Shown: piece by piece, positions 16,224 to 39,891 of the stretch
Numbering within the stretch: the stretch's first letter is position 1
Layout of the letters: each line of letters begins with the position of its first letter
From: Patescibacteria group bacterium
Lineage (GTDB): Bacteria; Patescibacteriota; Microgenomatia; JAMCYU01
NCBI GenBank assembly: GCA_023473585.1
Contig: JAMCYU010000009.1
Coordinates: forward strand, 83,487-126,656
DNA: 43,170 nucleotides
Direction of reading: 5' to 3'
The notes under the pieces: model-generated
Database searches by the model: none
Told to the model about the DNA's origin: nothing
The model's input: only the letters and a program-made list of their open reading frames with translations
Translations under genes and position numbers: made by a program

Positions 16224-16226
16224 AGA

Positions 16227-16257
16227 CTTAATACATAATACTTAATACTTTATACTT
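16227..16257. repeat. AT-rich repeat, family 2, solo copy
   Basis: Three units of the type CTTAATAC/ATAATACTTAATACTTTA in the gap between mvaD and the upstream kinase gene. The repeat overlaps and supplies the kinase stop codon (16250-16252). Confidence 0.6.
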
Positions 16258-18066: not shown

Positions 18067-18075
18067 AAAAAGATT

Positions 18076-18375
18076 TTAAATGGGAGTAAATTTGATACCG
18101 TAAGGAATAACACCTTCACTGTCGGGTTTGTGCATCCGACGATAGACGGCTTTAACTTTTTGGCCAACGCGCAAATCTTTTTCCTGCCAATTCACCAGTT
18201 GGGCTACAAATCTTTCCTTATTTTCTAATTCCACCAAGGCCACCGGGTAAGGCGTTACTTCTTCAAAACCCAAGGGCGGCACTTTAATGACCGTCCAAGA
18301 AATAATTTTGGCTTCTTTGCCTAAAAGACTGGTGATCTTTTTTTGATGACGCCAAACTTTAACTGGTGAAATCAT
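18076..18375 (-). CDS. DUF35 OB-fold protein (thiolase/HMG-CoA synthase scaffold)
   Basis: The protein has 99 residues. The C-terminal two thirds match the DUF35 OB fold (SWTVIKVPPLGFEEVTPYPV, ALVELENKERFVAQLV, VIPYGIKFTP). In archaea this protein bridges thiolase and HMG-CoA synthase in a channelling complex. Archaeal forms carry an N-terminal rubredoxin-like zinc ribbon with four cysteines; here the N-terminus has only about 20 residues and no cysteine. It overlaps the thiolase gene by four bases, which fits the complex. Confidence 0.88.
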   Translation of the reverse strand: MISPVKVWRHQKKITSLLGKEAKIISWTVIKVPPLGFEEVTPYPVALVELENKERFVAQLVNWQEKDLRVGQKVKAVYRRMHKPDSEGVIPYGIKFTPI

Positions 18376-19523: not shown

Positions 19524-20566
19524 ATTTTTCTTGTGTATTTCAAATATTCTGTATAGGTTATGTCTTTTTTCTTTTGCAAAAAACTACTTAATCCCGGCGC
19601 TAATTTTCTTCTTAATGGCAAAAGTTTGGTTGTTTTCAAAATAAAACTGTCTGCACCGGCGCCTGAACCATACGAGGTCAGAAAAAGAAGCCGGTTGGGT
19701 TGGGCCGTTTCTAAAACCCGGCACAAACCCAAAAGAGCTGAAGCTGAATACGGATTGCCAATCTCTTTAACCGTTAAGCTCGGCTCAAGCTGTTCTTGGG
19801 TAAAACCGAGCCTTTTGGCTATGTCCACGGGGAATTTACCGTTGGGCATATGAAAAATACAAGAGGCAAAATCCTTAGGTTTGAGTTGGGTTTTTTGTAA
19901 TAATTTTTGACTGGCTTCCTGCACGTGGGCAAAATAGGCCGGCTCGCCGGTAAATCTACCCTGATGTGAAGGATAAGGAATACCGTCACGACGCCAAAAA
20001 TCCGGCGTGTCTGACGAATAAGAAAGAAAGTCTAAAACTTCAACCAAAAAATTTTCTTTGTTTCTCCCTAAGACAAAAGCGGCCGCCCCGGCGCCGGCGG
20101 TATATTCTAAAATATCGTGGGGCTTGGCTTGTGAAGAATCACTGCCGATGACTAAGCCATATCTTATAAGCCCTGCTTCTAAAAGTCCGGCGAGATTTTC
20201 CAAACCAGAAGTGGCGGCTTTACAGGCAAATTCTAAATCCGCCGCCAGATAATTATGGCCGACACCTAGGGCTTCGCCGACGATGGTGGCGCTGGGATTA
20301 ACGGCATACGGGTGAGACTCCGAACCAACATAGACCGCTTCAATCTCTGAGGCTTCTTTGCCACTTATCATGAGGGCGTTTTTCGCCGCTTCCACAGCCA
20401 TCGTCACCGCGTCCTCGTCAGGTCCGACCACCGCTTTTTCCCTAACACCCAAAGATCTTTCCATGTCCTGGGCGTTTTTCCCCCAGACCTTAGCGATTTC
20501 CGCAACCTTAATTCTGTTTTGAGGGACGTAACTACCAAAACCGACAATGCCGACATTTTTAAGCAC
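19520..20566 (-). CDS. mvaS: Hydroxymethylglutaryl-CoA synthase (archaeal type)
   Basis: The protein has 348 residues and adds acetyl-CoA to acetoacetyl-CoA to give HMG-CoA. The N-terminus VGIVGFGSYVPQNRIK and the active-site LEFACKAATSGLENL (Cys about 111), the HMPNGKFPVDIAKRLGF block (His about 233) and the LTSYGSGAGADSF block are those of archaeal HMG-CoA synthases. It overlaps HMG-CoA reductase by eight bases and thiolase by four, consistent with the channelling complex known from archaea. Confidence 0.94.
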   Translation of the reverse strand: MLKNVGIVGFGSYVPQNRIKVAEIAKVWGKNAQDMERSLGVREKAVVGPDEDAVTMAVEAAKNALMISGKEASEIEAVYVGSESHPYAVNPSATIVGEALGVGHNYLAADLEFACKAATSGLENLAGLLEAGLIRYGLVIGSDSSQAKPHDILEYTAGAGAAAFVLGRNKENFLVEVLDFLSYSSDTPDFWRRDGIPYPSHQGRFTGEPAYFAHVQEASQKLLQKTQLKPKDFASCIFHMPNGKFPVDIAKRLGFTQEQLEPSLTVKEIGNPYSASALLGLCRVLETAQPNRLLFLTSYGSGAGADSFILKTTKLLPLRRKLAPGLSSFLQKKKDITYTEYLKYTRKI

Positions 20567-21698
20567 TGTGTCCTCCTCTTGCCAGCTTTAAATGGGCCCC
20601 AGCTAAACTGCCTTCGGCTAAACTGGCTAAAAGCGACAATTCTCCGGCTAAAACCGCGCCGGCCATCACTTTGGCCAAAATATCCGTCTTGGGTTTTTCT
20701 TGGCCAAAAATAATCCCTAAACCTTCTTTTTGCGTCGCTAAATTAGTCCCGCCGCCGACGGTCCCGATCATTAAATCGGGTAAATAAACGGAAAAATATA
20801 AATCCTGGTCAACAATTTCCGCCGTGGTTAAACCCAAACTCCCCTCGGTGATATGGGCAAGGTCTTGGCCGGTAGCGGCAAAAACGGCGGCAATAATATT
20901 GGCAAAGTGAGCGTTAAAAGCCATCGAACCGGAAAGAGCCGAACCGATTAAACACTTATTTAACCAAACCTCAAAGATTTTTTGAGCCTTGGTTTTGAGA
21001 ACTTCTTTAAGAACTTTTTCGGTAATTTGCACTTCAGCCCAGACTTTTCGGCCACGGCCAAAAAGAAAATTGCGCCAGGCCTGTTTTTTATCAACACAAA
21101 AATTGCCGCTTAAACTTAAACACCGGCTTTGGGTTTTGGCTTCGATTAGGGGAATAAAGGCCTGGGTGGCGATTGTTGCCATGTTCATCCCCATGGCTTC
21201 TTCGGTATTGAAATAAAATCTGGCAAAAACGTTTTTACCAACCACCTGGGTTTCGACTTTAGTCAAGTCTAAATGGTTGGAGGTCTTTTGCGCCAAAGTT
21301 TTAAGCTTGTCAAGATTTTCCGTTAACCAATTGGCCAGTTTAAAAGAAAAAGCTAACGAATCGGTCTTAAAAACAGGACCGCGCGTCGTCCCGATTTTTT
21401 CCAAAAAAACATTAGCCCCACCAACCAAGCCAATCGCTTTACAACCACGATTAACGGAAGCAACCAAAGCTCCCTCGGTCGTAGCCAGGGGTAAATAATA
21501 ATAATCCTTACCAATCTTTAAAGGTCCGGCTACGCCCAAAGGTAATTGGATGACACCAATCATCTGTTCACAGTTTCGCGTGCTAATCAACTTATCGTCC
21601 AAAGAATAACAACCGATATTTTTTAAAGAAATTTTTAATTCTTTTTCTAGGGTTTCTCTTCTTTCCTCAACGGTTTTGACCTTCCTTAAATCAGACAT
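20559..21698 (-). CDS. mvaA: Hydroxymethylglutaryl-CoA reductase
   Basis: The protein has 379 residues without the membrane anchor of eukaryotic enzymes. It reduces HMG-CoA to mevalonate, the committed step. Visible class I-like blocks: MIGVIQLPLGVAGPLKIG (about 45-62), TTEGALVASVNRG (catalytic Glu), EEAMGMNMATIATQA, SGNFCVDKKQAWRN (catalytic Lys), AATGQDLAHITEGS (catalytic Asp), GTVGGGTNLATQ, and the C-terminal SLAGAHLKLARG (catalytic His). All four catalytic residues are present. It overlaps the membrane-protein gene upstream and mvaS downstream by eight bases each. Confidence 0.95.
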   Translation of the reverse strand: MSDLRKVKTVEERRETLEKELKISLKNIGCYSLDDKLISTRNCEQMIGVIQLPLGVAGPLKIGKDYYYLPLATTEGALVASVNRGCKAIGLVGGANVFLEKIGTTRGPVFKTDSLAFSFKLANWLTENLDKLKTLAQKTSNHLDLTKVETQVVGKNVFARFYFNTEEAMGMNMATIATQAFIPLIEAKTQSRCLSLSGNFCVDKKQAWRNFLFGRGRKVWAEVQITEKVLKEVLKTKAQKIFEVWLNKCLIGSALSGSMAFNAHFANIIAAVFAATGQDLAHITEGSLGLTTAEIVDQDLYFSVYLPDLMIGTVGGGTNLATQKEGLGIIFGQEKPKTDILAKVMAGAVLAGELSLLASLAEGSLAGAHLKLARGGHSA

Positions 21699-23449: not shown

Positions 23450-23752
23450 ATGTTTGTTGTGATTGCCGATTTTTTTTCACCGGCCAAGACTTTTCCGACC
23501 TTTGGCGATTTGGTTAACGTCTTAACGAAAAATGTCTTTGTTTTGGCCGGCGTTTTGGTTTTTGTCTTCTTGATTGTGGCTGGATTAAAATATATAATGA
23601 GTGCAGGCGCGGGCGATGAGAAAGAAATTAGCCAAAGTAAAACGGCCATGACCGCCGCCCTGATCGGTTTTTTATTAATTTTTACGGCTTATTGGATTAT
23701 TCAGATTATTGAATATATTACCGGTATAGCTATTTTTAAACCAGGAATATAA
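23450..23752 (+). CDS. VirB2/TrbC-like pilin protein
   Basis: The protein has 100 residues: a short N-terminus, a transmembrane helix (NVFVLAGVLVFVFLIVAGLKY), a loop MSAGAGDEKEISQSKTAM, and a second helix (AALIGFLLIFTAYWIIQIIEY). It is the first of six tandem pilin-like genes and has the strongest promoter match in the window. Nine bases separate it from the next gene. Confidence 0.8.
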   Translation: MFVVIADFFSPAKTFPTFGDLVNVLTKNVFVLAGVLVFVFLIVAGLKYIMSAGAGDEKEISQSKTAMTAALIGFLLIFTAYWIIQIIEYITGIAIFKPGI

Positions 23753-23761
23753 AATAATAAT

Positions 23762-24115
23762 ATGGCATCAATTTTTGGCGAAGTTAATCCACCTCTGGTC
23801 CAGTACGGGACATGGTCCCTCGGTTTTGTTCCTTTTTTGAACAATATTCTTCGTTTGGTTTTTGTCATTGCCGGTCTTTTTGCTCTGGTTAATTTAATCA
23901 CGGCCGGCTTTCAGTTTATGGGTGCCGCCGGCGACCCGAAGCAAATCGAAAAGGCTTGGAGCAAAATTTGGCAATCCATTATCGGCTTGGTTATTATCGT
24001 CGGATCCTTTTTACTGGCCGCCATTTTCGGCTACTTAATTTTTGGGAGCCCAACGGCTATTTTATATCCTGAAATATGGGGACCGGGAACACCGCCTCCC
24101 GCGGCAACTCCCTAA
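23762..24115 (+). CDS. VirB2/TrbC-like pilin protein
   Basis: The protein has 117 residues. The helix-loop-helix core is ILRLVFVIAGLFALVNLITA, loop FMGAAGDPKQIEKAWSKI, then IIGLVIIVGSFLLAAIFGYL, with a proline-rich tail (GPGTPPPAATP). The tail would lie outside the core pilin helices. Part of the same operon as its neighbours. Confidence 0.78.
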   Translation: MASIFGEVNPPLVQYGTWSLGFVPFLNNILRLVFVIAGLFALVNLITAGFQFMGAAGDPKQIEKAWSKIWQSIIGLVIIVGSFLLAAIFGYLIFGSPTAILYPEIWGPGTPPPAATP

Positions 24116-24128
24116 AGAGATATTAAAA

Positions 24129-24509
24129 ATGACATTACCAGCTCAAAGTCAACCAATCAATCCAGGAGGCCATCTCGGGTCAGGTGGCGGCCTGGGCCCC
24201 CTTTCCCGTCTTTGGGATATCGATAGTCTTGGTAAAGGTTTTGGCAATGTTTTTTCGGCGATCGTCGGATTTTTAACCGTTGGCGCCAGTCTTTTTTTTA
24301 TTTTTCAGTTTATAACCGCAGGCATTCAATGGCTCTCTGCCGGCGGCGACAAAAATATGCTGCAACAAGCGCAGCAAAAATTGACCAACAGTTTTATCGG
24401 TCTTGTGATCGTGGTCGCGGCGGTCGCCATTATTAAAATTATCGGCGTCTTCTTAGGCTTTGACCTTTTAAATCCGGCCAGCTTTATCGAATCAATCAGA
24501 TTTAAATAA
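24129..24509 (+). CDS. VirB2/TrbC-like pilin protein
   Basis: The protein has 126 residues from ATG 24129; a longer open frame to 24042 overlaps the preceding gene and is not favoured. A glycine-rich N-terminus (about 1-35) is followed by helix AIVGFLTVGASLFFIFQFIT, loop LSAGGDKNMLQQAQQKL, and helix FIGLVIVVAAVAIIKIIGVF. Same operon. Confidence 0.75.
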   Translation: MTLPAQSQPINPGGHLGSGGGLGPLSRLWDIDSLGKGFGNVFSAIVGFLTVGASLFFIFQFITAGIQWLSAGGDKNMLQQAQQKLTNSFIGLVIVVAAVAIIKIIGVFLGFDLLNPASFIESIRFK

Positions 24510-24512
24510 AAG

Positions 24513-24911
24513 ATGATTACCAATCCTGTTTTACCGGAGTTTGAAATCGGCACTTTAATCGGTAATTTTATCGGTCTTTTTATTATTATTGCCGGCATTA
24601 TGGTTTTAATTTATCTGGTCTGGGGAGGAGTTGAGTGGATTTCTTCCGCCGGTGACAAGGCGGCGATAGAGGGAGCCAGGAACAGAATTACCAACGCTTT
24701 AATTGGCCTGGGGATTGTGGTGGCGGCTTGGGCGATTATGACGCTGACCTCTGATTTTTTCGGCCTGAATTTTCCAAACTTGCCCATCCCAAGTTTATCC
24801 GGCGATCGGGTTTCCGAAACGAAAACCAGTAAAGAGAATTGTAGAAAAAATTGTTTAGCTGGCTCTAAATCTGCCCTTGAACAGAATCAGTGCCTTACCG
24901 CTTGTAAATAA
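24513..24911 (+). CDS. VirB2/TrbC-like pilin protein with cysteine tail
   Basis: The protein has 132 residues. Core: LIGNFIGLFIIIAGIMVLIY, loop WISSAGDKAAIEGARNRI, helix ALIGLGIVVAAWAIMTLTSD. The C-terminal tail contains ENCRKNCLAGSKS and NQCLTACK, four cysteines that could make disulfides outside the membrane. The core is very close to the next gene but one (GVEWISS..GDKA, ARNRIT), indicating recent duplication. ATG follows the previous stop by three bases. Confidence 0.78.
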   Translation: MITNPVLPEFEIGTLIGNFIGLFIIIAGIMVLIYLVWGGVEWISSAGDKAAIEGARNRITNALIGLGIVVAAWAIMTLTSDFFGLNFPNLPIPSLSGDRVSETKTSKENCRKNCLAGSKSALEQNQCLTACK

Positions 24912-24938
24912 TAAGACAAATTATAAATATTTTACTAT

Positions 24939-24968
24939 TTGACAAGCTATAACTTAATCAATTAAAAT
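24939..24968 (+). promoter_or_regulatory. Promoter of pilin gene 24995
   Basis: TTGACA (24939-24944), 18 bases, TAAAAT (24963-24968). Unlike its neighbours it serves a gene with a 5' leader and a strong Shine-Dalgarno sequence. Confidence 0.6.
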
Positions 24969-24994
24969 TAATTAAATCAAGTAAGGAGGTGAAT

Positions 24995-25366
24995 ATGCGC
25001 AAATTAGCTAAAATCGGTTTAAGTTTAGGTTTATTATTAACGCAGGTAGCTCCTGTTATCGCTGCCGACATTACGATTCCAGATACAGCAGGAGTAGGAA
25101 GGATAACTATTGGATCTTTGATTGGCGGTATCGTTGGAGTTGCTATCTTGATCGCCGGTTTATTGGCTTTTATTTATCTGGTTTGGGGAGGGGTTGAGTG
25201 GATTTCCTCAGGCGGCGACAAGGCCGGGATGGAATCAGCCAGAAACAGAATTACGGCAGCTTTTGTCGGTTTAGGAATTGTGGTTGCATCTTGGGCGATT
25301 GCCAAATTAATGGGAACTTTCTTTGGCATCGACATTTTTAACATCACTCTTCCCAAAGCCTATTAA
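24995..25366 (+). CDS. VirB2/TrbC-like pilin with signal peptide, likely major subunit
   Basis: The protein has 123 residues. A signal peptide (KLAKIGLSLGLLLTQVAPVIAA) is followed by the helix GGIVGVAILIAGLLAFIYLV, loop WISSGGDKAGMESARNRI, and helix AAFVGLGIVVASWAIAKLMG. ATG 24995 is chosen because AGGAGG (24983-24988) sits six bases before it; the GTG at 24989 overlaps that site. The own promoter, strong ribosome-binding site and classic VirB2 layout suggest the most highly made subunit; that is inference. Confidence 0.82.
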   Translation: MRKLAKIGLSLGLLLTQVAPVIAADITIPDTAGVGRITIGSLIGGIVGVAILIAGLLAFIYLVWGGVEWISSGGDKAGMESARNRITAAFVGLGIVVASWAIAKLMGTFFGIDIFNITLPKAY

Positions 25367-25370
25367 TTTT

Positions 25371-25724
25371 ATGTTTGTTCCTTCTGTTTTTGCGGCAGAA
25401 GCCACTCCTGCATCGTGGTCAGCACGTTGTGCTACTAATGAAGTGGCGACTATTCAGGGACTCGAATGTGTCTTTCAAAATATTGTTTCTGTGGCTTTAG
25501 CTTTAGCGGGTCTGGCGGTTTTTCTCATGCTTTTGGCTGGCGGGTTAAAATATTTAACTTCCGGAGGTGATCCTAAAGCTCAGGAATCGGCGAAAAATAC
25601 CCTGACTTATGCGATTTTAGGGTTGGTCTTGATGGTTGCCGCTTTCCTTATCTTAAGTCTGATTGCTAATTTTACCGGCCTCAAAGATAGTCTTCTGAAC
25701 TTCACTATCCCCGGCGGAAACTGA
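25371..25724 (+). CDS. VirB2/TrbC-like pilin protein
   Basis: The protein has 117 residues from ATG 25371, four bases after the preceding stop; the longer frame to 25323 overlaps the previous gene and is rejected. N-terminus MFVPSVFAAEATP, two cysteines (ARCATNE, GLECVFQ), helix IVSVALALAGLAVFLMLLAG, loop YLTSGGDPKAQESAKNTL, helix AILGLVLMVAAFLILSLIA. It ends in TGA, showing TGA is a stop here. Confidence 0.78.
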   Translation: MFVPSVFAAEATPASWSARCATNEVATIQGLECVFQNIVSVALALAGLAVFLMLLAGGLKYLTSGGDPKAQESAKNTLTYAILGLVLMVAAFLILSLIANFTGLKDSLLNFTIPGGN

Positions 25725-25771: not shown

Positions 25772-26140
25772 ATGCAAGACACAAAAATAAAAAGTTTTAC
25801 TGATTTAATTGCCTGGAAAGAAGGACATAAATTAGTCTTAATAATTTATAAAATCACACAAAAATTCCCTAAAAATGAATCATTCGCCATTATTGATCAA
25901 ATAAGAAGATGCGTCGTTTCTATTACCAGTAACATTGCAGAAGGATTTTCTCGTCAGGGCAAAAAAGAAAAAATTCAGTTTTTTTATATGGCACTCGGTT
26001 CAAATACCGAACTTCAAAATCAATTATTAATTAGTAAAGACCTCGGCTATCTAGGGAAAGAAGAATTTTCTGAAATTGCTCAACAGACAATTATAGTAAG
26101 CAAACTTATCAATTCACTCATAAAATATTTAAAAAAATAA
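25772..26140 (+). CDS. Four-helix-bundle protein (S23/IVP family)
   Basis: The protein has 122 residues with the family signature DLIAWKEGHKLVLIIYKIT (about 11-29), IIDQIRRCVVSITSNIAEGF (about 40-59) and a C-terminal NSLIKYLKK. This subfamily (DLxxWqka...IAEG) differs from the copy at 14480, so the two were acquired separately. Like the other, it interrupts the T4SS-like gene series and is framed by an inverted AT-rich repeat. No function is known in this setting. Confidence 0.92.
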   Translation: MQDTKIKSFTDLIAWKEGHKLVLIIYKITQKFPKNESFAIIDQIRRCVVSITSNIAEGFSRQGKKEKIQFFYMALGSNTELQNQLLISKDLGYLGKEEFSEIAQQTIIVSKLINSLIKYLKK

Positions 26141-27626: not shown

Positions 27627-27627
27627 A

Positions 27628-30600
27628 TTAATGGGCTTTCAGTTCAAGCCCCCGCAGAAATTTTTGTCTGGGCAATAAGACAAGGGCTGTGGCAAATTTC
27701 TGGCTTAACAAACTAGGATACGGACCAACTTTCATCGGTTCGTTAGCTGGCTTTTCTCCCCTTAAAGCTTCCCCTCTTTCATATCGACGATTAATAACTA
27801 ACGGCCTTAAGAGCGGGTTCTTGGCAAATTGTAAGAAGAAGTTTTGCATGTTTACTTTAGCTGCCGGAGAAACCCAATTAGCAGGGCCAAAACCGCTATA
27901 TAATATTAAATCATTTGTATCAATATCAATACTTTGCATATAGGAAATAAGACCCGCCCCTAGGCTAAATCCCAAAACGGGCAAAATTAATCCTGTAGTA
28001 CTTTGTCCTCCCGTCAAAATTGTGGCCCTTAAGATATTGTCGAGTATCATCGACCCCCCGACTCCTCCTACGCTCGGCCAAGCCGCCGCCCTGATTAAAT
28101 ATTTTCTACTCCACATGTTATGAGCATATTCACGTGTCACGTCAAGACCTAAGAATATCCTGGCAAATTCATCGGCGCCTTTAAATGTCAACATTTCTAA
28201 AGAACCCAACGCAAAGGCCTGACGTGTTGTCAATTCTCTTTTAATCGTTTCTTTAGCATTTTGTATCGCTTCTGGCCCACCAACCGTTGGTGAAGGAGAA
28301 ATATAATCTTTCCAACCCAATTCAAATGCTCTTTTTCTATATTCAGTGAGAGAGAGCTCTGCCTGTCTGTCTTCGACAGAATAGATCCCCATCATTTTAG
28401 CAAAGCGAACATATGGCGCCGGGTCATATTCCAATGACGGATCGGCTCCTTTAACCGCGATTTGAGTTAAACCGGCCATTATCCCTTCAAGGTTGTCAGG
28501 ACCAATCGTTGTCGTCGTCCAAAGGGCTAAATTATTAGTATAGATTTGTGTATACTCCCAAGTTTCTCTATCAAAATTTGTCACCTGGTCAACTTTTTTA
28601 TTGTTTCTAGCTGCAAAAATTTTATCAGACAACTCGGCTGCCAAAACCTGCTGTTTATTAATGGAAAAATAACCTAAAACGTAAGCCATGGTTAGAGCAG
28701 GTTCATTAATGGGAAATCCCTCCGACCAATCCTCTTCAAGCTGTCTTGGACCAAAGCCCATCATGGTTGAACGAACTTGACTAACACCATAAAGTGAAAT
28801 TTTTTCTCCTCTTTCGTTAATTATATATTTACGTTTATTATATTCAGAATTTTTTGTTCCGTCGGGATTAAGCTCTTTCGTTTCATATGGATCATATAAC
28901 CATTGCCCCTGAAGTCCTCCAAAGGGAACCTTATGACCAGTCAGCATACTGTCAATAGCCCAACGATAAGTATGGAGATTAATACTTTTTACGCCAGCCT
29001 GATCAAGCCAATACCATTCGTTTCCCGATTTTCCTTCTCTTAATAATGCTGCTGTCCTTGCTGCGGCAAAATTATAATTCTCTGCTGTTGATCTGTTATC
29101 GTCCCAGGAAAAATCATGTTTTAGAGTATAAGGAATAAGAACTTCTTTTAAAGCCCAATGAATTGGATCGAGAAAATCATAAGCATGCAAAAGATTTGTA
29201 GTCGTATATTCTCCCTGTTTTTTTGCAGGTTTAGTAACTTCCTCCATAAACAATCTTAAGACGTAATCGAGCTTGGTTTTTAATTGTTGGTCGCCTCCAC
29301 AAAAAGAAAGTAATTTTGCCTGTCTTTCTGCTTCTGTCATTTGATCATCATACTTGACTAAAAAACGATCGGTTCTTTTAATTTCTTCTGTCGGGCTTAC
29401 ACGCAAATAAGTCGGCGTCTCTTCAATGTCACGTTCTAGGTCTGCTTGTAATCCCATAAAAGTTAAAAGCAACTCAAGCGGTTTAAGATTTTTTTCTTGT
29501 TCTTCGCCTAGATTTTTTAAAATTTGGGCCTTATCCTCTTCGGTTACCAGAAGTAGAAGCTGTCCGTTTGCATCTCTCCGTTGTACAAGCTCATTAAGAA
29601 AGGCGCTAATTTTTTCTCTGGCGTAATTATTCCAAGCATCAAGATGAAAATTTTCATTCATGGCGCGTCTTAAAAGACCCCTAAATACGAGTTCAAGCCG
29701 ATCTTCTGGGGTTAACGGTCTTTTTCTTTCTTGTTCAAGTTTTCTTCTGGCTTTTTCAGATGGGTTGATCCCAACTCCGGTTTCTTTCGTATAGCTTCCT
29801 TCTAAACCGGCATCGGTAAAATGAAGAGTGGTGTTAAGAGTCGGTTCAAGATGATTGCGAAATTGCCAGATGGTTTCCATAAAGGCTAATTTTTGACCCT
29901 GCAATCTAATTAACTCTGCCTGATCCGCAATATATCTGCCAATTAATTTTTCTCCCCAAGAACTTAAAATATAATCACTTACTTCGGGAATCTGAACATA
30001 ACCTTTTATTTGACCACGTTTTTCTAATTCGTCAAAATTCTTAATTAGGGTTCCGTATTCGCTGGGATCAATATTCCCAATCATTTTGTCAACTAAAGGG
30101 ATTTCCTGTTCCAAAAGATAGCGGAGATACTGGACAACGGTTCCCAGCTCGGTATGTTGACCAACCAAATTAAGATCAAAACACCTACGAATATTTCCTT
30201 GACTATCAACCCAACATTCGTCTAAATCTATCCCTGGCTGGAGAATAGGAACCAATTCTTGGTGTAAAAGACCAATGTTGTCAAACTCGCTAACGGCCTC
30301 TTTCTTAAGCCAAACCGTTCTTTGTCTGGCCATATTAATTTTAACAATTCTTTTTAGAAGTTTTCGACGATGTTCTACCTCTTGCAGGTCGGTGGGTTTT
30401 TCGCTAAGAAGTAGATCTTTAGGAAACAATTGTCGATAAAATCGATAAAGAAATTCTCTCCTCTTTGCTCCGTCGGCTATTTGCGTATATGATTCAAAAT
30501 CCAATCCTGGAATCTTTCTGCCAATTTCTTCGAACAATTGTTTTGTTATGCTTGTTCTTGATAAAAGCCAGGCGATATTAAATTCGCCTATCCACGTATC

Positions 30601-32388
30601 TTCTTGCCCTAAGCGTAATTGAGGGTTATCTTTTTGGCTTGGTTTTTGTCCTTCAACCGTCGCGGCCAAAGCCTTTAGGCTTTGATCCATCAATTCGTAA
30701 TAAGCCTCACAGTTACCATCATCAGGATATCTAAAAAGATCGTGAACAATGTCAAAATGAAGTCTCCCGGCTTCAATTCTTTGTCGCCCAGCTATCCATA
30801 ATTTTCTAGAAATAGTCTGTCTGGGATCAAAATCTTCAGGAACATATTCTCCTTTTTCCCTTAAAATTTGTTCGTTGTGAGGAAGAGGAATCATGACTTC
30901 TGCTTCAGCTCCGGTTTTATAACCAATAGTCATATTTTTCATCTTGTGCGGCCAGTCAATTGATTGAAAAATCCATTGTTCTGCTTGACCGATTTCACTA
31001 TCGTCGACAAGAAGATCGGCCATACTATACATTCTGGCATAACGTAAAAACCTTTGGGTCCCCTGAAAAGCTGCGTAAATAGGATAAAAATATCTTGAGG
31101 TTACTTTACTTGTTTTAACGCATTTTAAAGTTTCTAAATTTATATATTGGCCCAAGACAAAAAGAAGGCTCTCTCTAGGTTTTTCTTGGTCAATAACTTG
31201 GTAATCGGGTCGTTCATCCCATGATCTGTGGGCGGCCTCACAAACCGCCCGGCTTTTAAATAACTCTCCTAATATTTCGTTTGGTAAGTATCTGTCAGCC
31301 GCAGCTTGAAAAGTCTGTAAGTCTTTCATCGTTGAGTCTTCCAGAGGCTTCATGGCTGTATCATAAGCAAAAGGAACATTACGAAGGACTCTCAGCCAAT
31401 TGCGTAATGTTTTTGCGTCTTCTCGAGCTTTTTTATTTTGAATTGGGATTCTGTCGGCTCGTATATCTGCCTCTATGGCTTGTTCTATCGAGGTTATGCC
31501 ATTATGAACATAATGTTGACCTTCTTCTCTTCTCGGATTATTTAAGTAATAAAAAACCAATTCTGTTCCCAGGGCCGCCATAACTGCCGTTCTCTCTCTC
31601 TCGTTAATTTCCCCGGCTTTTCTATTAAGAAAATTATCAACAATATCGCCTTGCTTATTTCTAATAACATCTATGGCTGTGGTATAGATTCCTGCTTTCA
31701 CTAACGCCTGTTTTCCCTCCTCATAAAGAGTCCAAACAATATTAAAAGGGTCTTCTCCTTCGCGCTCTTCTGGAGACTTTTTCCAATCAACTCTTTGTGG
31801 TTCAATTTTCACGCCTTGTTCTAATTGAACCCTCTTTTTTTCTAAGTCATCTTCTGAAGTTCTCTCGAGAAATCTTCTTCCTTCTCCTTTTTCTATCCAT
31901 TCGACATAAATTCTTTTTCTTTCTGCTTCTTCTTTTCTTCGTTGTTCTTTTTCTTTATCGCCTTCTGGGGGGGTTACGGTCTTTTTCTCGGGAGGGATAA
32001 AACTTCCCTCTCCAGGCTTGACCTTGCCCCTAACTATTTCTTCTTTATAAAGAAGAAAACGCTCGAGTTTCGGCTCTTCTTTAGTCATTTTCTCAAGATC
32101 TTTTAAGATATTTGCCGCTCGGTCCTTGTCTCCTTGGTGATTGGCCTCATCTATTTGTTTACCTAAAATTTTAGCTCTGTCTTTAAATCTTGTGGGAACA
32201 TTTTTTAGAGCCTTATCTGCCTCTTGTGGTGTTTCTCCTCCGACCATTGGGGCTATTCCTTTAGCAACTAATTTATCGATAATGTCTTTTGAAACACCGG
32301 AGACTTTTTTGGAGACATCTTCCCAATAAGCTCTGGCCCTCTCTTGTGGACTACGACCTTCACTTCTTATTTCCTGTTTTTCTGTCAT
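27628..32388 (-). CDS. Giant protein of unknown function in T4SS-like locus
   Basis: At 1586 residues this is the longest gene in the window. I recognise no domain. Residues 1-220 are highly charged and probably coiled (KEKEQRRKEEAERKRIYVEW). The large middle (about 220-1400) is soluble, rich in Trp, Tyr, Arg and Glu, with a mixed helical look. Only near the end, at about 1470-1530, are hydrophobic stretches seen (GGSMILDNILRATIL; TGLILPVLGFSLGAGLISYM), so it may be a peripheral or tail-anchored cytoplasmic protein. It is transcribed against the flanking secretion genes. A cytoplasmic component or substrate of the secretion system are both possible. Confidence 0.85.
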   Translation of the reverse strand: MTEKQEIRSEGRSPQERARAYWEDVSKKVSGVSKDIIDKLVAKGIAPMVGGETPQEADKALKNVPTRFKDRAKILGKQIDEANHQGDKDRAANILKDLEKMTKEEPKLERFLLYKEEIVRGKVKPGEGSFIPPEKKTVTPPEGDKEKEQRRKEEAERKRIYVEWIEKGEGRRFLERTSEDDLEKKRVQLEQGVKIEPQRVDWKKSPEEREGEDPFNIVWTLYEEGKQALVKAGIYTTAIDVIRNKQGDIVDNFLNRKAGEINERERTAVMAALGTELVFYYLNNPRREEGQHYVHNGITSIEQAIEADIRADRIPIQNKKAREDAKTLRNWLRVLRNVPFAYDTAMKPLEDSTMKDLQTFQAAADRYLPNEILGELFKSRAVCEAAHRSWDERPDYQVIDQEKPRESLLFVLGQYINLETLKCVKTSKVTSRYFYPIYAAFQGTQRFLRYARMYSMADLLVDDSEIGQAEQWIFQSIDWPHKMKNMTIGYKTGAEAEVMIPLPHNEQILREKGEYVPEDFDPRQTISRKLWIAGRQRIEAGRLHFDIVHDLFRYPDDGNCEAYYELMDQSLKALAATVEGQKPSQKDNPQLRLGQEDTWIGEFNIAWLLSRTSITKQLFEEIGRKIPGLDFESYTQIADGAKRREFLYRFYRQLFPKDLLLSEKPTDLQEVEHRRKLLKRIVKINMARQRTVWLKKEAVSEFDNIGLLHQELVPILQPGIDLDECWVDSQGNIRRCFDLNLVGQHTELGTVVQYLRYLLEQEIPLVDKMIGNIDPSEYGTLIKNFDELEKRGQIKGYVQIPEVSDYILSSWGEKLIGRYIADQAELIRLQGQKLAFMETIWQFRNHLEPTLNTTLHFTDAGLEGSYTKETGVGINPSEKARRKLEQERKRPLTPEDRLELVFRGLLRRAMNENFHLDAWNNYAREKISAFLNELVQRRDANGQLLLLVTEEDKAQILKNLGEEQEKNLKPLELLLTFMGLQADLERDIEETPTYLRVSPTEEIKRTDRFLVKYDDQMTEAERQAKLLSFCGGDQQLKTKLDYVLRLFMEEVTKPAKKQGEYTTTNLLHAYDFLDPIHWALKEVLIPYTLKHDFSWDDNRSTAENYNFAAARTAALLREGKSGNEWYWLDQAGVKSINLHTYRWAIDSMLTGHKVPFGGLQGQWLYDPYETKELNPDGTKNSEYNKRKYIINERGEKISLYGVSQVRSTMMGFGPRQLEEDWSEGFPINEPALTMAYVLGYFSINKQQVLAAELSDKIFAARNNKKVDQVTNFDRETWEYTQIYTNNLALWTTTTIGPDNLEGIMAGLTQIAVKGADPSLEYDPAPYVRFAKMMGIYSVEDRQAELSLTEYRKRAFELGWKDYISPSPTVGGPEAIQNAKETIKRELTTRQAFALGSLEMLTFKGADEFARIFLGLDVTREYAHNMWSRKYLIRAAAWPSVGGVGGSMILDNILRATILTGGQSTTGLILPVLGFSLGAGLISYMQSIDIDTNDLILYSGFGPANWVSPAAKVNMQNFFLQFAKNPLLRPLVINRRYERGEALRGEKPANEPMKVGPYPSLLSQKFATALVLLPRQKFLRGLELKAH

Positions 32389-32418
32389 TTATAATTTAAG
32401 CTTAGCAAAAAAGGCCCT

Positions 32419-32445
32419 CTAATTGCAAATTAGAACAAAATTATA
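32419..32445 (-). promoter_or_regulatory. -10 box and palindrome before giant gene
   Basis: TATAAT on the minus strand (32440-32445) lies about 50 bases before the ATG at 32388. A perfect palindrome CTAATT-GCA-AATTAG (32419-32433) covers the expected transcription start and could be an operator. Confidence 0.4.
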
Positions 32446-32475
32446 TCGAAGATAAGTCAAGCTTTTACTACGTAA

Positions 32476-32533
32476 TAAATGAGCGAATTATTTGATTTCT
32501 TCGATTAATTCGCTTCGCTCATTATACCAAAAT
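32476..32533. repeat. Hairpin repeat copy B in divergent promoter region
   Basis: Nearly identical to 13477-13533. GAGCG pairs with CGCTC here where copy A has GAGCA with TGCTC, a compensatory change. The gap 32389-32682 holds this repeat, the promoters of the two divergent genes, and no other gene. Confidence 0.75.
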
Positions 32534-32625
32534 AACGGTTTTTAATAATTTTACTTTCCCTAAAAATGGCTCCGTGAAAACTTATCTGCATCAATTTAAT
32601 CCTTATTTAATACATTTAGATACAG

Positions 32626-32654
32626 TTGAATTATACACTTTTACTCTTTAGAAT
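32626..32654 (+). promoter_or_regulatory. Promoter of PrgI-VirB4 operon
   Basis: TTGAAT (32626-32631), 17 bases, TAGAAT (32649-32654). A leader of about 22 bases precedes the ATG at 32683. Confidence 0.45.
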
Positions 32655-32682
32655 AAAATTAACTAGCATTATCTGATAGAAT

Positions 32683-33996
32683 ATGGAACAACATCCTGTC
32701 CCGCAAAATATAACCGGTTTCCAGTTCAAACTTATTGGTGACATGACGATCCGCCAATTCCTTTATCTGGGCGGCGGTATCCTCTCAGCTTACGTTACCT
32801 TGCAATTCGGCCTTCCGTCAATTATTAAGTGGTTTATCGCGGCGAATCTGACCGCGGCCGGCTTTGCCTTTGCCTTTATCCCGATTGAAGAAAGACCGCT
32901 GGATCGATGGCTGACCGCCTTTTTTAAAAGCATTTACAGCCCAACCCAGTTTCTTTGGAAAAAGAAAGTAACGCCGCCTGAAGTTTTAACCATGACGGTC
33001 GCCGTTTCGCAGCCGCCGACGCCGGAAACCCTTAAAAAAGAACAATCTGCGGCCCAGGTTGAAGAATATTTATTGACCTTACCCGGCGCTTCTTTGGGCA
33101 AATTGGACAAACAAGAAGAATCTTTTTTACAAAAAATCGCTTCTTCTTTTGAAACCCCGCCGTTAATCACGATTCCGGCGGCCGATCAGCCGTTAATCTC
33201 ACCGACACCCAACCCGGCCCCGGTTGTCCCGGTTAGCCTTCCCGAGGAAAAAATCGTCCCCCGAATTTTTCCCGACCAACCTCTGCTTGAAGTCAAAAAC
33301 GTCCCGCCGACTGTCCAAACGCCGCCGTCGCCACCCCCGCCGGCCCCAAAACCGATAACGCCGACAACTCCGCCCGTTACTCTCGGCCAAAAAACCGAAG
33401 AATTAACCAGCAAAATTAACGCCCTGCAAAAAGAACTTTCGGCTCAAACCATCACTAGACAAAGGTTTTTAGAAATTCAGGGGCAACTATTAGCGCTTCT
33501 TGAGGAAAAAGAAAACTTAACCACCGAACTGGTCGAACTGAAAAAAAAGTTGGCCCAAAAAGCCGAACCGACGGTCAAGCCGGCGGCCGTTGCCCAAGCT
33601 CAGGCAGAACCAACCGTGAAAATTGTGGCCACCGATCTGGCCGCTAAATTCGGTATGCCCAATCCGCCAATCACCCCCAATATTATCTCGGGTATGGTCA
33701 GAACCCAAAAACAGGGGATTTTACCGGGAATTATTGTCGAAATCAGAAACCAGGAGGGCACGCCGGTTCGGGCCTTAAAAACCGGAAAACTTGGCCAGTT
33801 TGCCATTTCCACGCCGCTTGCTAGTGGTCTTTACACTCTTCGCCTTGAAGATCCGCAGCACCGTTTTCTTTTTGACCTGATTGAAATTACTCTTAAGGGC
33901 GAAATCGTTTCGCCGATTGAAATTATGGCCAAAACGCAAAACGATTTGGTTAAAGAAGATCTTAAAAAAAAGCTTTTTGGTCCAGATAATTTTTAA
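32683..33996 (+). CDS. PrgI-like membrane protein with proline-rich stalk and C-terminal beta domain
   Basis: The protein has 437 residues. The N-terminus (1-110) is the PrgI/VirB3-like module: HPVPQNITGFQFKLIGDMTI, two helices (LYLGGGILSAYVTLQFGL; WFIAANLTAAGFAFAFIPI) and ERPLDRWLTAFFKSIYSP. Then come a proline-rich stretch (about 165-245), a coiled coil (about 246-295), an Ala/Pro linker, and a C-terminal domain (about 335-425) like carboxypeptidase-regulatory/CarboxypepD folds (SGMVRTQKQGILPGIIVEIR, GLYTLRLEDPQHRF). Usual PrgI proteins have only the first 110-130 residues. It starts the operon with the VirB4 ATPase. Confidence 0.88.
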   Translation: MEQHPVPQNITGFQFKLIGDMTIRQFLYLGGGILSAYVTLQFGLPSIIKWFIAANLTAAGFAFAFIPIEERPLDRWLTAFFKSIYSPTQFLWKKKVTPPEVLTMTVAVSQPPTPETLKKEQSAAQVEEYLLTLPGASLGKLDKQEESFLQKIASSFETPPLITIPAADQPLISPTPNPAPVVPVSLPEEKIVPRIFPDQPLLEVKNVPPTVQTPPSPPPPAPKPITPTTPPVTLGQKTEELTSKINALQKELSAQTITRQRFLEIQGQLLALLEEKENLTTELVELKKKLAQKAEPTVKPAAVAQAQAEPTVKIVATDLAAKFGMPNPPITPNIISGMVRTQKQGILPGIIVEIRNQEGTPVRALKTGKLGQFAISTPLASGLYTLRLEDPQHRFLFDLIEITLKGEIVSPIEIMAKTQNDLVKEDLKKKLFGPDNF

Positions 33997-34005
33997 TTAA
34001 AACAT

Positions 34006-34686
34006 ATGCCGATACCTGCCCCCATCAGAGGCACAACTCAAGAATTTACAGAAATTGAAGACATAAGAGATAATCTTCTTTTACTTTCTGACGGTTCTTG
34101 CTGTCTTTTAATCGAAACCTCGGCCACCAACTTCGGTTTATTGTCGGAGAAAGAACAAGAAGCCTTAATTTTTGCTTACGCCGGGCTTTTAAATTCCTTA
34201 ACTTTTCCGCTGCAACTGGTCGTCCGCTCAAGACGCAAGGATGTTTCTTCTTATCTTAAACTTTTGGACATCGCCATGGCTAAACAGGAAAAACCGGAAC
34301 TTAAAGACCGTATTGCCAAGTACAAAGATTTTATCAGTAAAATTGTCGGCGAGAATAACGTTCTCGATAAAAAATTTTATTTAGTTATTCCTTTTTCCAG
34401 TCTGGAGCTGGGTGTTAAAACCGCGGCTTCGGCCTTGGTTAAAAAAAGAGGCCTGCCTTTTTCTAAAAAATATATTTTGGAAAAGGCGAAAAACACTTTA
34501 GAGCCCAAACGCGACCATCTCTTGCGGCAATTAAATAGGCTTGGACTTAAGGGCGAACAATTAACGACGCAAAAATTGATTGAGCTTTTTCACAGCATTT
34601 ATAATCCGGAAACCAGCCAAAAACCGATTGCCAAAGAGGAATACGAGGTGGCGGTCGTGGAATTACAGCCGCCAACGAAAAGATAA
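34006..34686 (+). CDS. VirB4-associated TraC-like N-terminal protein
   Basis: The protein has 226 residues without membrane segments. The sequence (FTEIEDIRDNLLLLSDGSCC, LIFAYAGLLNSLTFPLQLVV, FYLVIPFSSLELG) resembles the N-terminal domain found in TraC/VirB4 proteins of Gram-positive and CPR systems, here as a separate gene. It ends two bases before the VirB4 ATPase, so the two products probably act as one. Role inferred from family and position. Confidence 0.78.
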   Translation: MPIPAPIRGTTQEFTEIEDIRDNLLLLSDGSCCLLIETSATNFGLLSEKEQEALIFAYAGLLNSLTFPLQLVVRSRRKDVSSYLKLLDIAMAKQEKPELKDRIAKYKDFISKIVGENNVLDKKFYLVIPFSSLELGVKTAASALVKKRGLPFSKKYILEKAKNTLEPKRDHLLRQLNRLGLKGEQLTTQKLIELFHSIYNPETSQKPIAKEEYEVAVVELQPPTKR

Positions 34687-36582: not shown

Positions 36583-36612
36583 GGTATTGGGGCCTCTCTT
36601 TTGACAAAACTT

Positions 36613-39600
36613 ATGGAAAATCGCTACCAACAATTCTTAAAAAAGACTCTGCAAAGCGGACTTTGGGAACTTAAGAAAAATCCGGAAGCCACCGAAGTTG
36701 CCGGTATTTCCTTGCCAACTTTCGATCTTTTAATTCAGGCTTTTCGCAGTGGTTTGTCTCAAGAATTAAAAATTACCCTTCCCCACAATCTTAAAAATCC
36801 TGACTATCTGGAAACTCTTTTAACCAAACTCGACATTCTTCTTTCCCCGGGTCTCCCTGAAAAAGTGACCCAAGAAAACCTGGCAACCCTATCAGAGATC
36901 GTGGGTCTTTATCAGGAACACCAGGAAAAAGGAAAGATCGAAAAAGATTTAGCTAGTCAACAAGCCAGATGGCAAAGTAGGTTTGAACAGTCAATTAAAA
37001 CTTATCATCAAAATTTACTTCGCAATTTAGATAAAGAAATTCTTAAGGCTTGTCCTTCTTTGGCTGATAAACCAAAGATTGTGGAAATTATTAGTAAAGA
37101 TGTGGCCCGGACGATCCAGGATCAGGCTCTCCCCGCGATTAATTTTAATTATGAAGCTCAAAAAATAATTCAGGCGGTAACCGAAAAAGCTCTTATCGAT
37201 TACGCCTCACAAGTTTCTGAAATAGAAGCCGACCGATCTTTGGCTTCAAAAATTGCCCAAACCGTCGCTCGGGAAAACGAAGCCGCCACCTGGGAAACAA
37301 GAACTTCACAAATAAACGCCACCGCCACAACCCCTCTTTGGGAGGTCGAAAGGGCATTGCGTTTGGCGGTAGCCAGAAATTTACCCTTGGAAATTTACGA
37401 ACAACGTCCGGAAGTTGTTGAAGAAATTTCCCGCCGGGTCCTGGGAAGGCTTTCTTTGCCATATCTCGCGACCTCAGAAAACTATCAGCAAGAGTTAGCC
37501 AAAGAGATTGGCGTCATTATAGGTTCACCGGAAATACAAAAAGTCCTCGGCTCTTCTTCCGAAGAAGCACGACAAAAGATACAAGAACTGCCGGGTGAAG
37601 TTTCTAGCAGGGTGACTCCTGTCGCCCAAAAATGGTCACAGTCTCCCCAGGCAACCATGGCCGGAGTCAGTTTTGCGGCCCCTCCTAGTCCTCAAGCCCC
37701 TCCGGGATTACCGAATGATCCGAGTTTCCGTGGCCGCTTTGATGACGCCTGGGTGGCTTCCCACCCTACTGATTTTCTTTTTTTTGGTCTTTCCCAACCA
37801 GGTTTAAAAACTTTGCCGACCAGCCTTGTTGGTTTAGGCCTTGATTTTCTTGGCGTCTTTCCGCCCCTACAAAACAAAATGCTTCTTTCCTATCTGGCTA
37901 AGAATCAGAATGAACTGCAAGGAGCGATTGAATATTACGATAGAAAAGTAGCTAAAGAAAAAGCGGCTAAAGGACCAAACACAAAAGGAGAAGCGGCCTA
38001 TCAAAATATGGCAGATTATCTTCGAGCCGTTCAGGCTTTTGGTAAACATCTACCCACGTCGATAACTTTGCCCATAAGGTTCTATGCCAAGATACAGTCT
38101 CTTAATCTAAAATTCGCTAACAAAACAGGTATCGGTCTTTTTCAATTACTCGAATTAACGGCTAAATATGGCGGGCCCGGTTTTAGTTATGGAGCTGAAC
38201 ATGGCTTAAAAGTTCTTGCTTCAAGACTCGTCGGTGCCAGTCTTCATGCTTCTCTCCCTGGTCTTTTTCTTTATGACGAACTCGGACAAGAAGTCTATTT
38301 TAAATACGGACCTAGGGGCATAACAAAATGGGTTAGGGGGAAAATTTTCAAACTCGGCAAAGAAAGAATTGCCAGATCTGCATTCGGCGCCGGAGTTAAG
38401 GGCATCACCACAAAAATATTAGCTAAACTCGGTTTGTCGGCTCTTCTGGGAACTTTAAGCGGCGGGGCAACAATTTTATTACAAATCGGCTGGTCGCTTT
38501 TAAAAAGAATTTGGAAATGGCTGGCCGGCGCCTTAGGGCTTTTTATCTTTTGGCTAATCAGCCAGCTCGGCGGATTAGCAACTCTGCTTTTGGCTATTCC
38601 CGGATTTATTGCCGGCTTTATGATCGGCGGTCCGGTCGCAGCGGTTGTCGGTGCTATCTCCCTCCCGACAATTGCCGTTTTAGGTAAGGGTTTATTTTCT
38701 TCTCTGGCTTCGGCGCTTTTTGGCCCAGGTGGTTTAATTTCCAGTTTTTCCTTGCCAAGTTTGACCGGTTACGCCATTTTGGCGCCCGTCACATTTGCCG
38801 GCTTAGGTATCGGCACTCTGTTTGTCATGATTCCTCTAATGTCTGCTTTTGTTGACTACCAACAGACTTTTGCGCCGATCTTTTTTAGCGACTGCCGCGT
38901 TGATGATATTCATCAAACCAAGACGATTACGCCGGAAAACAAAGCCGTTTTTGTCGCCAAATACATGGCGCTTTTCCCCAACAGTTTTTTGGAGAAAAAA
39001 ATTGACGAAGTGATTGATCGCAGCCAGACCCTTGGTTTTAATCCGGCGCTGGCGGTGGCAATCTGGGGAGAAGAGTCTCATTTTTCCAATTACGGCGAAA
39101 AAGTCGGAACAGGCCAGGTTTCTGAGGGTTATGATTTTGGTTGTGGCGTTGGCTGTACGGAAAATCGGCCCAAGACTTTTGACCAATCGTTGGGCTGCTT
39201 TGTCGCCGGTCCTCCACAAACAACCTGTAAAAACGCTTGTCTTACCAAGCCCGACTTTGCTTCTTTTATGGAATGCTATGGCCCGGCTGCTCAAAATCCT
39301 AATTTTATCAGTAATGTTTTGTCTTTTTATCGTGATCTGGTCCCCGGTGGGGACGGAGCCATTACTTGTCCAGGCGGGACGACCAGTGAATATGCTTCGA
39401 GTCTTTTAAACGCTTTGATTGCCTGCTATGACCACAGCAGTGTCATTAACGAAACCAGCTTTAAAGATAAGGGCGCCTGTTTGGTCAGTAAGAGAATTAC
39501 TCCACAGGCGGCTTCTCTTATTGCCGGCTCGGTAAGTACTTATAAAGCCCTGCAATGTGTGGGCTTTGCCCAGGCAGTTGAGGCGGCGACCGGAGGCAGT

Positions 39601-39891
39601 TTACAGCAAACATCTTACGGTTCGGCCAAATATTATTATCTAAGAAGCGTCCCTGGTTATCAGAATGTTCCCAAAAGCCAAAAAAATGTTCGGGTCGGTG
39701 ACGTCGCGGTCTGGAATGGGACTGATGGACATATGGCCATCGTCGTTGAGGTCGCTTCTGATATGTCCTGGTTTCGTGTTGCCCAGGCGATTGGAACCGA
39801 CGATCTGGGCAGACCCTATGGTTTAGTTAATGAAAGCTCTAAACAATTAATAACCATGCCAAGTCTTTTGGGCTTTTTAAGGAGGCAATAA
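36613..39891 (+). CDS. Large membrane protein with lysozyme-like and CHAP peptidase domains
   Basis: The protein has 1092 residues from ATG 36613; a TTG four codons earlier is possible. Residues 1-350 are soluble and helical; a linker rich in Pro follows (SFAAPPSPQAPPGLP). Hydrophobic helices fill about 605-755. The C-terminus lies beyond them: a lysozyme-like/SLT region (about 785-910; NPALAVAIWGEESHFSNYG with a candidate catalytic Glu, six or more Cys) and a CHAP domain (about 970-1085; LQCVGFAQAVE with the nucleophile Cys, DGHMAIVVEVAS with His). It would open peptidoglycan for the secretion channel, the role of VirB1, but fused to a large membrane component. It follows virB4. Confidence 0.88.
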   Translation: MENRYQQFLKKTLQSGLWELKKNPEATEVAGISLPTFDLLIQAFRSGLSQELKITLPHNLKNPDYLETLLTKLDILLSPGLPEKVTQENLATLSEIVGLYQEHQEKGKIEKDLASQQARWQSRFEQSIKTYHQNLLRNLDKEILKACPSLADKPKIVEIISKDVARTIQDQALPAINFNYEAQKIIQAVTEKALIDYASQVSEIEADRSLASKIAQTVARENEAATWETRTSQINATATTPLWEVERALRLAVARNLPLEIYEQRPEVVEEISRRVLGRLSLPYLATSENYQQELAKEIGVIIGSPEIQKVLGSSSEEARQKIQELPGEVSSRVTPVAQKWSQSPQATMAGVSFAAPPSPQAPPGLPNDPSFRGRFDDAWVASHPTDFLFFGLSQPGLKTLPTSLVGLGLDFLGVFPPLQNKMLLSYLAKNQNELQGAIEYYDRKVAKEKAAKGPNTKGEAAYQNMADYLRAVQAFGKHLPTSITLPIRFYAKIQSLNLKFANKTGIGLFQLLELTAKYGGPGFSYGAEHGLKVLASRLVGASLHASLPGLFLYDELGQEVYFKYGPRGITKWVRGKIFKLGKERIARSAFGAGVKGITTKILAKLGLSALLGTLSGGATILLQIGWSLLKRIWKWLAGALGLFIFWLISQLGGLATLLLAIPGFIAGFMIGGPVAAVVGAISLPTIAVLGKGLFSSLASALFGPGGLISSFSLPSLTGYAILAPVTFAGLGIGTLFVMIPLMSAFVDYQQTFAPIFFSDCRVDDIHQTKTITPENKAVFVAKYMALFPNSFLEKKIDEVIDRSQTLGFNPALAVAIWGEESHFSNYGEKVGTGQVSEGYDFGCGVGCTENRPKTFDQSLGCFVAGPPQTTCKNACLTKPDFASFMECYGPAAQNPNFISNVLSFYRDLVPGGDGAITCPGGTTSEYASSLLNALIACYDHSSVINETSFKDKGACLVSKRITPQAASLIAGSVSTYKALQCVGFAQAVEAATGGSLQQTSYGSAKYYYLRSVPGYQNVPKSQKNVRVGDVAVWNGTDGHMAIVVEVASDMSWFRVAQAIGTDDLGRPYGLVNESSKQLITMPSLLGFLRRQ

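What the first reader, a model, noticed from the sequence alone, without database searches (positions are those of the whole stretch)
27628..32388. 1586-residue protein of unknown fold inside the secretion locus
It takes up 11 percent of the window in a small-genome organism, is encoded opposite to its neighbours, ends one base from the VirB6-like gene, and has no domain I can recognise. Large mostly soluble body with hydrophobic C-terminal segments suggests a cytoplasmic scaffold, a toxin or a secreted effector.
Basis: partly seen in the sequence, partly recalled or inferred. Interest (0 to 1): 0.7.

Follow-up and report, generated by a model that had tools for sequence, protein, structure and literature searches.

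The report
VirB6-facing large protein of Microgenomates
This real 1586-residue protein has no detectable relative of its own, but it fills a gene position that nearly all tested genomes of this class of ultrasmall bacteria fill with a large, very divergent protein facing the secretion-channel gene virB6, so it is probably an undescribed part or cargo of their secretion machine.

Summary
ORF 27628-32388 (-) is 1586 aa, in-frame coding, opposite to both neighbours, with 1 base between its stop codon and that of VirB6. It matches nothing in Pfam, NCBIfam, PHROGs, PDB sequences, phages, plasmids, 374 genomes of its class, or GTDB r220 contigs (close-relative search).

The main result is positional. 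The window comes from the Microgenomates group (Patescibacteria). At 131 of 131 further VirB6 loci of the class, the gene just after virB6 lies on the opposite strand, tail to tail, usually 500-1500 aa. One exception turned up later (G040, a six-gene insertion). Where VirB6 has moved about 22 kb from VirB4, the partner stays with VirB6. The partners evolve very fast, but one superfamily (over 35 proteins, at least 8 GTDB families) is provably homologous and confidently all-helical with no PDB match. P0001 shares position, size and amino-acid composition (p=0.93; 1.2% of other ORFs score as high), but homology to any partner was NOT detected.

Best reading: a cytoplasm-facing, membrane-touching subunit that works with VirB6 (0.45). 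Rival: a substrate exported by this T4SS (0.25). I found no published description of this slot. No toxin evidence.

The parts
27628..32388 (-). P0001, 1586-aa protein; positional counterpart of the class-wide VirB6-facing large protein ('X')
   Evidence: ORF and coding potential; no family match; position; composition classifier
27937..28071 (-). C-terminal hydrophobic pair of segments (residues 1440-1484), Gly-rich, possible membrane hairpin
   Evidence: hydropathy; 36% of X proteins have a hydrophobic stretch in their last 70 residues against 15% of other large ORFs. In P0001 it lies 100-150 residues from the C end
27627..27627 (.). single base between the convergent stop codons of VirB6-like and P0001
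26214..27626 (+). VirB6-like polytopic membrane protein (470 aa), tail-to-tail partner of P0001
   Evidence: no Pfam hit
32389..32682 (.). 294-bp divergent intergenic region between P0001 and PrgI; imperfect hairpin at 32470-32545
   Evidence: -17.3 kcal/mol, z -3.6
32683..33996 (+). PrgI/VirB3-like protein
   Evidence: PF12666 above cut-off
34006..34686 (+). TrsD-like protein (N-terminal VirB4-like), by position and the published locus
   Evidence: weak PF11130 hit E 0.095; TrsD next to VirB4 in PMC12102498
34689..36509 (+). VirB4 ATPase
   Evidence: PF19044 E 3.9e-29; 52 of 59 relatives
36601..39891 (+). large membrane protein with C-terminal CHAP domain (VirB1-type cell-wall hydrolase)
   Evidence: PF05257 E 2.7e-7
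23450..25724 (+). cluster of six VirB2-like T4SS pilin genes upstream of VirB6
   Evidence: PF18895 above cut-off for 23450-23752 and 24989-25366; the other four by synteny and phmmer-based locus maps

Best explanation
P0001 is this lineage's version of an undescribed, nearly universal partner of VirB6 in the Microgenomates type IV secretion system. Shown: the gene is real and intact, it stands tail to tail with virB6, and a large antisense gene stands in that place at 131 of 131 further loci of the class. Shown for relatives: the products are large, charged, Trp-rich, Cys-poor, without a signal peptide, often with a hydrophobic C-terminal stretch, under purifying selection, and predicted all-helical. 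Inferred: P0001 is homologous to them though too diverged to see; the soluble body sits on the cytoplasmic face and the C-terminal hydrophobic segments touch the membrane at VirB6, where it acts as a platform for assembling the translocon or recruiting substrate. The convergent arrangement implies its own promoter (the divergent 294-bp region shared with PrgI), so it could be expressed separately from pilins and VirB6.
For: Position: 80/80 then 131/131 loci antisense and immediately after virB6; complete first ORFs have a median of 939 aa; median gap 17 bp in the script's metric (about 14 bp between stop codons), 101 of 131 at most 50. X follows VirB6, not VirB4: in G057 and G022 VirB6 lies about 22 kb from VirB4 and a superfamily-A member still faces VirB6 (L096, L144); in only 12 of 92 loci is PrgI the next gene after X. 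Homology shown without using position: a profile of one cluster (A2) hits 40 genomes, and the hits followed up in f2, f6, f8, f10, f16, f23, f32, f41 lie in the same slot except one at E 1.5e-4 in f35. Purifying selection: dN/dS 0.016 in the one pair with dS just measurable; within genus g47 X is usually as conserved as VirB6 or more so, e.g. 72% against 60%. Localisation: N-terminal hydrophobic segment in 1% of X against 94% of VirB6. P0001 belongs by composition: classifier with group-wise cross-validated AUC 0.98 gives 0.93; 1.2% of other ORFs score as high.
Against: No detectable sequence homology between P0001 and any X protein by phmmer, iterative hmmsearch or hhalign; scores no better than decoys. 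The X proteins themselves fall into several groups that do not align with each other, so the slot could hold unrelated proteins in different lineages. The 131 loci share one inheritance and are not independent events. Composition resemblance is not homology. Interaction with VirB6, membrane contact and any platform role are untested. At family scale X diverges much faster than the machine's core (24% identity against VirB6 51%, VirB4 78%), unusual for a structural subunit.
Confidence: 0.45

Rival explanations
1. P0001 and the other X proteins are the main cargo of the Microgenomates T4SS: large helical proteins made without a Sec signal and delivered through VirB6 into the host cell or its envelope.
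For: No signal peptide; fastest-evolving gene of the locus at family scale; stays with VirB6 rather than with the ATPases; many C-termini end in basic or hydrophobic residues. The weak, non-significant Foldseek neighbours of one X model among viral proteins are phage internal-virion and tape-measure proteins, which pass through channels. The substrate of the Patescibacteria T4SS is unknown (PMC11665869, PMC10633639).
Against: One copy at every locus examined, without arrays or recombining modules; strong purifying selection and conservation at or above VirB6's within a genus, not the pattern of a host-driven effector; the viral matches have TM-scores near 0.1 and E at or above 0.005; no conserved C-terminal signal seen.
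Confidence: 0.25
2. The slot is a shared location, not a shared gene: unrelated large proteins have replaced each other next to virB6, and P0001 is a lineage-specific orphan with its own function.
For: No alignment between P0001 and anything, and several mutually unalignable X groups.
Against: Consistent size, strand, gap, charge, Trp and Cys content across groups, and a composition classifier that generalises across held-out groups. Superfamily A joined family after family as sequences were added.
Confidence: 0.2
3. The convergent arrangement itself is the point: transcripts of P0001 and virB6 overlap at their 3' ends and regulate each other as antisense RNAs; the protein is secondary.
For: Stop codons 1 base apart here, and a median of about 14 bp in relatives, with no room for two terminators.
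Against: The reading frame is long, intact and under purifying selection in relatives; convergent genes with short gaps are common in compact genomes.
Confidence: 0.05
4. A toxin or effector acting on other organisms.
For: Size and place in a secretion locus only.
Against: No toxin domain in Pfam, NCBIfam, PHROGs or PDB sequences; no immunity-gene-like neighbour; single-copy core-like conservation of its counterparts.
Confidence: 0.05

Closest known systems
Patescibacteria T4SS locus (MPF_FATA-derived; VirB4, TrsD, PrgI/VirB3, VirB6, VirB2 pilin arrays), Quinonero-Coronel et al. 2025, PMC12102498
   Same: The window's locus has these parts in this setting next to dnaN/dnaA; P0001 lies inside it.
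   Different: The main-text parts I read do not describe a large antisense gene facing virB6. That study clustered neighbours at 30% identity and 70% coverage, which would miss it, and reports few VirB6 detected in Microgenomatia.
Saccharibacteria (Southlakia epibionticum) T4SS, SEML1_0006-0019, Wang et al. 2023, PMC10633639
   Same: Pilin-bearing T4SS near the replication origin; essential in its epibiont.
   Different: Not compared gene by gene here. In most of the 20 other-class loci fetched, virB6 is followed by a same-strand gene; the ones inspected look like cell-wall-hydrolase or membrane proteins rather than X.
Gram-positive conjugation proteins (pCF10 PrgH/VirB6, PrgI/VirB3, PrgL and PrgD/VirB8, PcfC/VirD4)
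   Same: VirB3-, VirB4- and VirB6-like parts are present.
   Different: I know of no counterpart as large and soluble as P0001 in these systems (own knowledge); no profile match to any known T4SS component.
Phage internal virion (ejection) and tape-measure proteins
   Same: Large, almost all-helical, no signal peptide; weak Foldseek neighbours of a superfamily-A model.
   Different: Not significant (best E 0.005, TM about 0.1), no consistent PHROGs match; resemblance of size and helicity only.

Membership tests
VirB6-facing large protein slot ('X') of Microgenomates | Immediately downstream of virB6 on the opposite strand, tail to tail with a short gap | tested here: met
   1-base gap in the window; 131/131 relatives; exception G040
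VirB6-facing large protein slot ('X') of Microgenomates | Large, charged, Trp-rich, Cys-poor, no signal peptide | tested here: met
   classifier 0.93
VirB6-facing large protein slot ('X') of Microgenomates | Detectable sequence homology to superfamily A, the Curtissbacteria group or any other X group | tested here: not met
   phmmer, hmmsearch, hhalign at decoy level. P0001 is therefore filed as a positional counterpart, not as a proven member
VirB6-facing large protein slot ('X') of Microgenomates | Shared three-dimensional fold | not testable with these tools
Patescibacteria T4SS locus | VirB4, PrgI and VirB2-like pilins beside the gene | tested here: met
   Pfam hits above cut-off
T4SS coupling protein (VirD4/TraG-D) | P-loop ATPase / TraG-D domain | tested here: not met
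   No Pfam hit in P0001; the genome has a separate TraG-D homologue at C9:40954
Known secreted toxin or effector families | Recognisable toxin or effector domain | tested here: not met
T4SS substrate (effector) | Exported by the T4SS | not testable with these tools
   needs a translocation assay
Phage internal virion / tape-measure proteins | Significant sequence or fold match | tested here: not met
   Tested on X relatives; P0001 itself: no PHROGs hit; no match in phages

The most novel reading that the evidence does not exclude
The VirB6-facing proteins, P0001 among them, are the unknown substrate of the Patescibacteria T4SS: giant helical proteins ejected through VirB6 to build a conduit into the host cell, working like phage ejection or tape-measure proteins.
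Probability: 0.12. Interest if true: 0.88.

Novelty: new variant of a known kind. Interest (0 to 1): 0.58.

Why it matters
The T4SS is essential for the one Patescibacterium tested (PMC10633639), yet its role is called completely unknown (PMC11665869). A large protein that accompanies virB6 almost without exception across a whole class, and that profile methods miss because it diverges so fast, would be a missing core part or the missing cargo. Either makes the function of this machine directly testable: one gene per genome to tag, localise or delete. It also shows that conserved position can reveal a protein family where sequence similarity fails.

Tried and rejected
Direct homology searches with P0001: 374 class genomes (best E 0.005, hits of about 50-95 residues), GTDB contigs and IMG/VR, phages and plasmids, PDB: nothing. 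The four scattered weak hits whose surroundings I fetched (L002, L005, L008, L009; loci L010-L013) showed no T4SS genes: rejected as chance. Profile bridging from every X cluster and singleton to P0001: failed; positive controls c7-c1 and L092-c1 worked. A first set of minus-strand ORFs upstream of PrgI mixed in other genes that looked like ClpB/C and LeuRS by eye; replaced by the stricter 'next after VirB6' rule. Internal repeats in P0001: none. PDB fold search of two X models: no match at E<=0.001. Viral fold search: suggestive but not significant. The same-strand large gene after virB6 in other classes as a homologue of X: rejected, since those inspected look like cell-wall-hydrolase or membrane proteins. 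Toxin reading: no support.

Full report
WHAT IS THERE. It is coding: the in-frame codon score is positive in all 100-codon blocks and negative in all five other frames, and the chance of so long an open frame is about 1e-40. One base separates its stop codon from that of the VirB6-like gene. Pfam, NCBIfam, PHROGs and PDB sequence searches give nothing; neither do tblastn against phage and plasmid records or scans of GTDB contigs and IMG/VR.

WHERE IT COMES FROM. The window lies in a 0.81-Mb genome with no order-mate in the held set. The neighbourhood is the Patescibacteria T4SS: VirB2-like pilins, a VirB6-like protein, PrgI/VirB3, a TrsD-like protein, VirB4 and a CHAP-bearing protein, matching PMC12102498.

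THE SLOT. Because P0001 had no homologue, I used VirB4 and VirB6 to find the same place in relatives and fetched about 140 loci. In 80 of 80, then 131 of 131 non-redundant loci, the gene directly after virB6 lies on the opposite strand, tail to tail. The first complete ORF has a median of 939 aa; the median gap is 17 bp in the script's metric, which still counts one stop codon, so about 14 bp between stops. A later look found one exception, G040, where six genes separate VirB6 from X, X still being antisense; small genes sit between them in a few others (G176, G159). X keeps company with VirB6 rather than with the rest: where VirB6 is about 22 kb from VirB4 (G057, G022) a superfamily-A member still faces VirB6, and PrgI is the next gene after X in only 12 of 92 loci. 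These loci share descent, so the count measures how stable the arrangement is, not independent origins.

ARE THE SLOT PROTEINS ONE FAMILY? Partly shown. A profile from one cluster (A2), applied to 374 genomes without using position, hits 40. Followed up, the hits in f2, f6, f8, f10, f16, f23, f32 and f41 lie in the VirB6-facing slot, one weak hit (f35, E 1.5e-4) elsewhere. This superfamily A joins over 35 proteins. The Curtissbacteria group (c0, 13 proteins) and several small groups do not align with A or each other. P0001 aligns with none; its hhalign scores equal those of decoys, while positive controls worked. What links P0001 to the others is position, orientation, gap, size and composition. 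A logistic classifier on amino-acid composition, cross-validated across groups (AUC 0.98), gives P0001 0.93, a level reached by 1.2% of other large ORFs of the same loci; VirB6, VirB4, the CHAP protein, DnaG and others in the window score low. Composition is not homology: I call P0001 a positional counterpart, not a proven member.

PROPERTIES. Slot proteins have an N-terminal hydrophobic segment in 1% (VirB6: 94%), a hydrophobic stretch in the last 70 residues in 36% (other large ORFs: 15%), 1.8% Trp, 0.2% Cys and about 30% charged residues. P0001 fits, with hydrophobic segments at 1440-1484 and a weaker one at 1554-1572. In genus g47, X is under strong purifying selection (dN/dS 0.016 in the one pair with dS just measurable; most dS values are saturated) and is usually as conserved as VirB6 or more so. 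Across families it diverges fastest: 24% identity against 51% for VirB6 and 78% for VirB4 in Curtissbacteria. Selection on P0001 itself cannot be tested.

STRUCTURE, BY PROXY. AlphaFold models of a Curtissbacteria X (L071; pLDDT 68, pTM 0.57) and a superfamily-A X (L027; pLDDT 76, pTM 0.68) are almost entirely helical, the latter with a long C-terminal helix. Neither has a PDB match at E<=0.001. Against viral models the A protein's nearest, non-significant neighbours are phage internal-virion and tape-measure proteins (E 0.005-0.05, TM about 0.1): a lead about size and helicity only.

OTHER CLASSES. In 20 loci from other classes, virB6 is mostly followed by a same-strand gene; those inspected look like cell-wall-hydrolase or membrane proteins, not X. 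A few (L213, L216, L228, L229) have an antisense neighbour; L213 and L216 look X-like (Trp-rich, C-terminal hydrophobic segments), L228 and L229 begin with a hydrophobic segment.

INTERPRETATION. Near-universal presence, purifying selection, lack of a signal peptide and loyalty to VirB6 favour a cytoplasm-facing subunit touching the membrane at VirB6 (0.45). Rapid divergence and the unknown substrate of this T4SS keep the cargo reading open (0.25). A mixed slot is the main sceptical alternative (0.2). No toxin evidence was found. I found no published description of this slot in the papers searched; supplements and non-open papers were not searched.

Noticed in passing
L057:13440-17096 (G055) and VirB4 of G039, G007, G021: VirB4 of some Microgenomates is interrupted near residue 260 (its P-loop region) by about 600 residues; in L057 Pfam shows an intein splicing domain and a LAGLIDADG endonuclease.
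   Followed up: partly
window 32470-32545: Imperfect inverted repeat between the divergent P0001 and PrgI genes, folds at -17.3 kcal/mol, z -3.6; function unknown.
   Followed up: partly
L231 (G040:C1:908500-922500): Only exception to the VirB6-X adjacency: six genes stand between VirB6 and the superfamily-A protein.
   Followed up: partly
L027, L028, L077, L085, L113 loci: A second minus-strand gene of 726-732 aa, highly similar between L027 and L028, sits just before PrgI in several loci; looks like a TraG/DUF87-type protein by eye.
   Followed up: no
L020, L026, L032, L035, L053 and others, between the pilin cluster and VirB6: Many relatives carry another large + strand gene (about 600-1400 aa) between the last pilin and VirB6 that the window lacks.
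   Followed up: no
window 15243-21698: Genes that read like a mevalonate pathway (HMG-CoA synthase and reductase, mevalonate kinases and decarboxylase), unusual for such a small genome; assigned by eye only.
   Followed up: no
window 14480-14845 and 25772-26140: Two small genes that look like S23-type four-helix-bundle proteins, each placed beside a T4SS pilin gene; assigned by eye only.
   Followed up: no
L213, L216 (other classes of the phylum): Antisense, Trp-rich proteins with C-terminal hydrophobic segments facing VirB6, suggesting that the slot exists beyond Microgenomates.
   Followed up: partly
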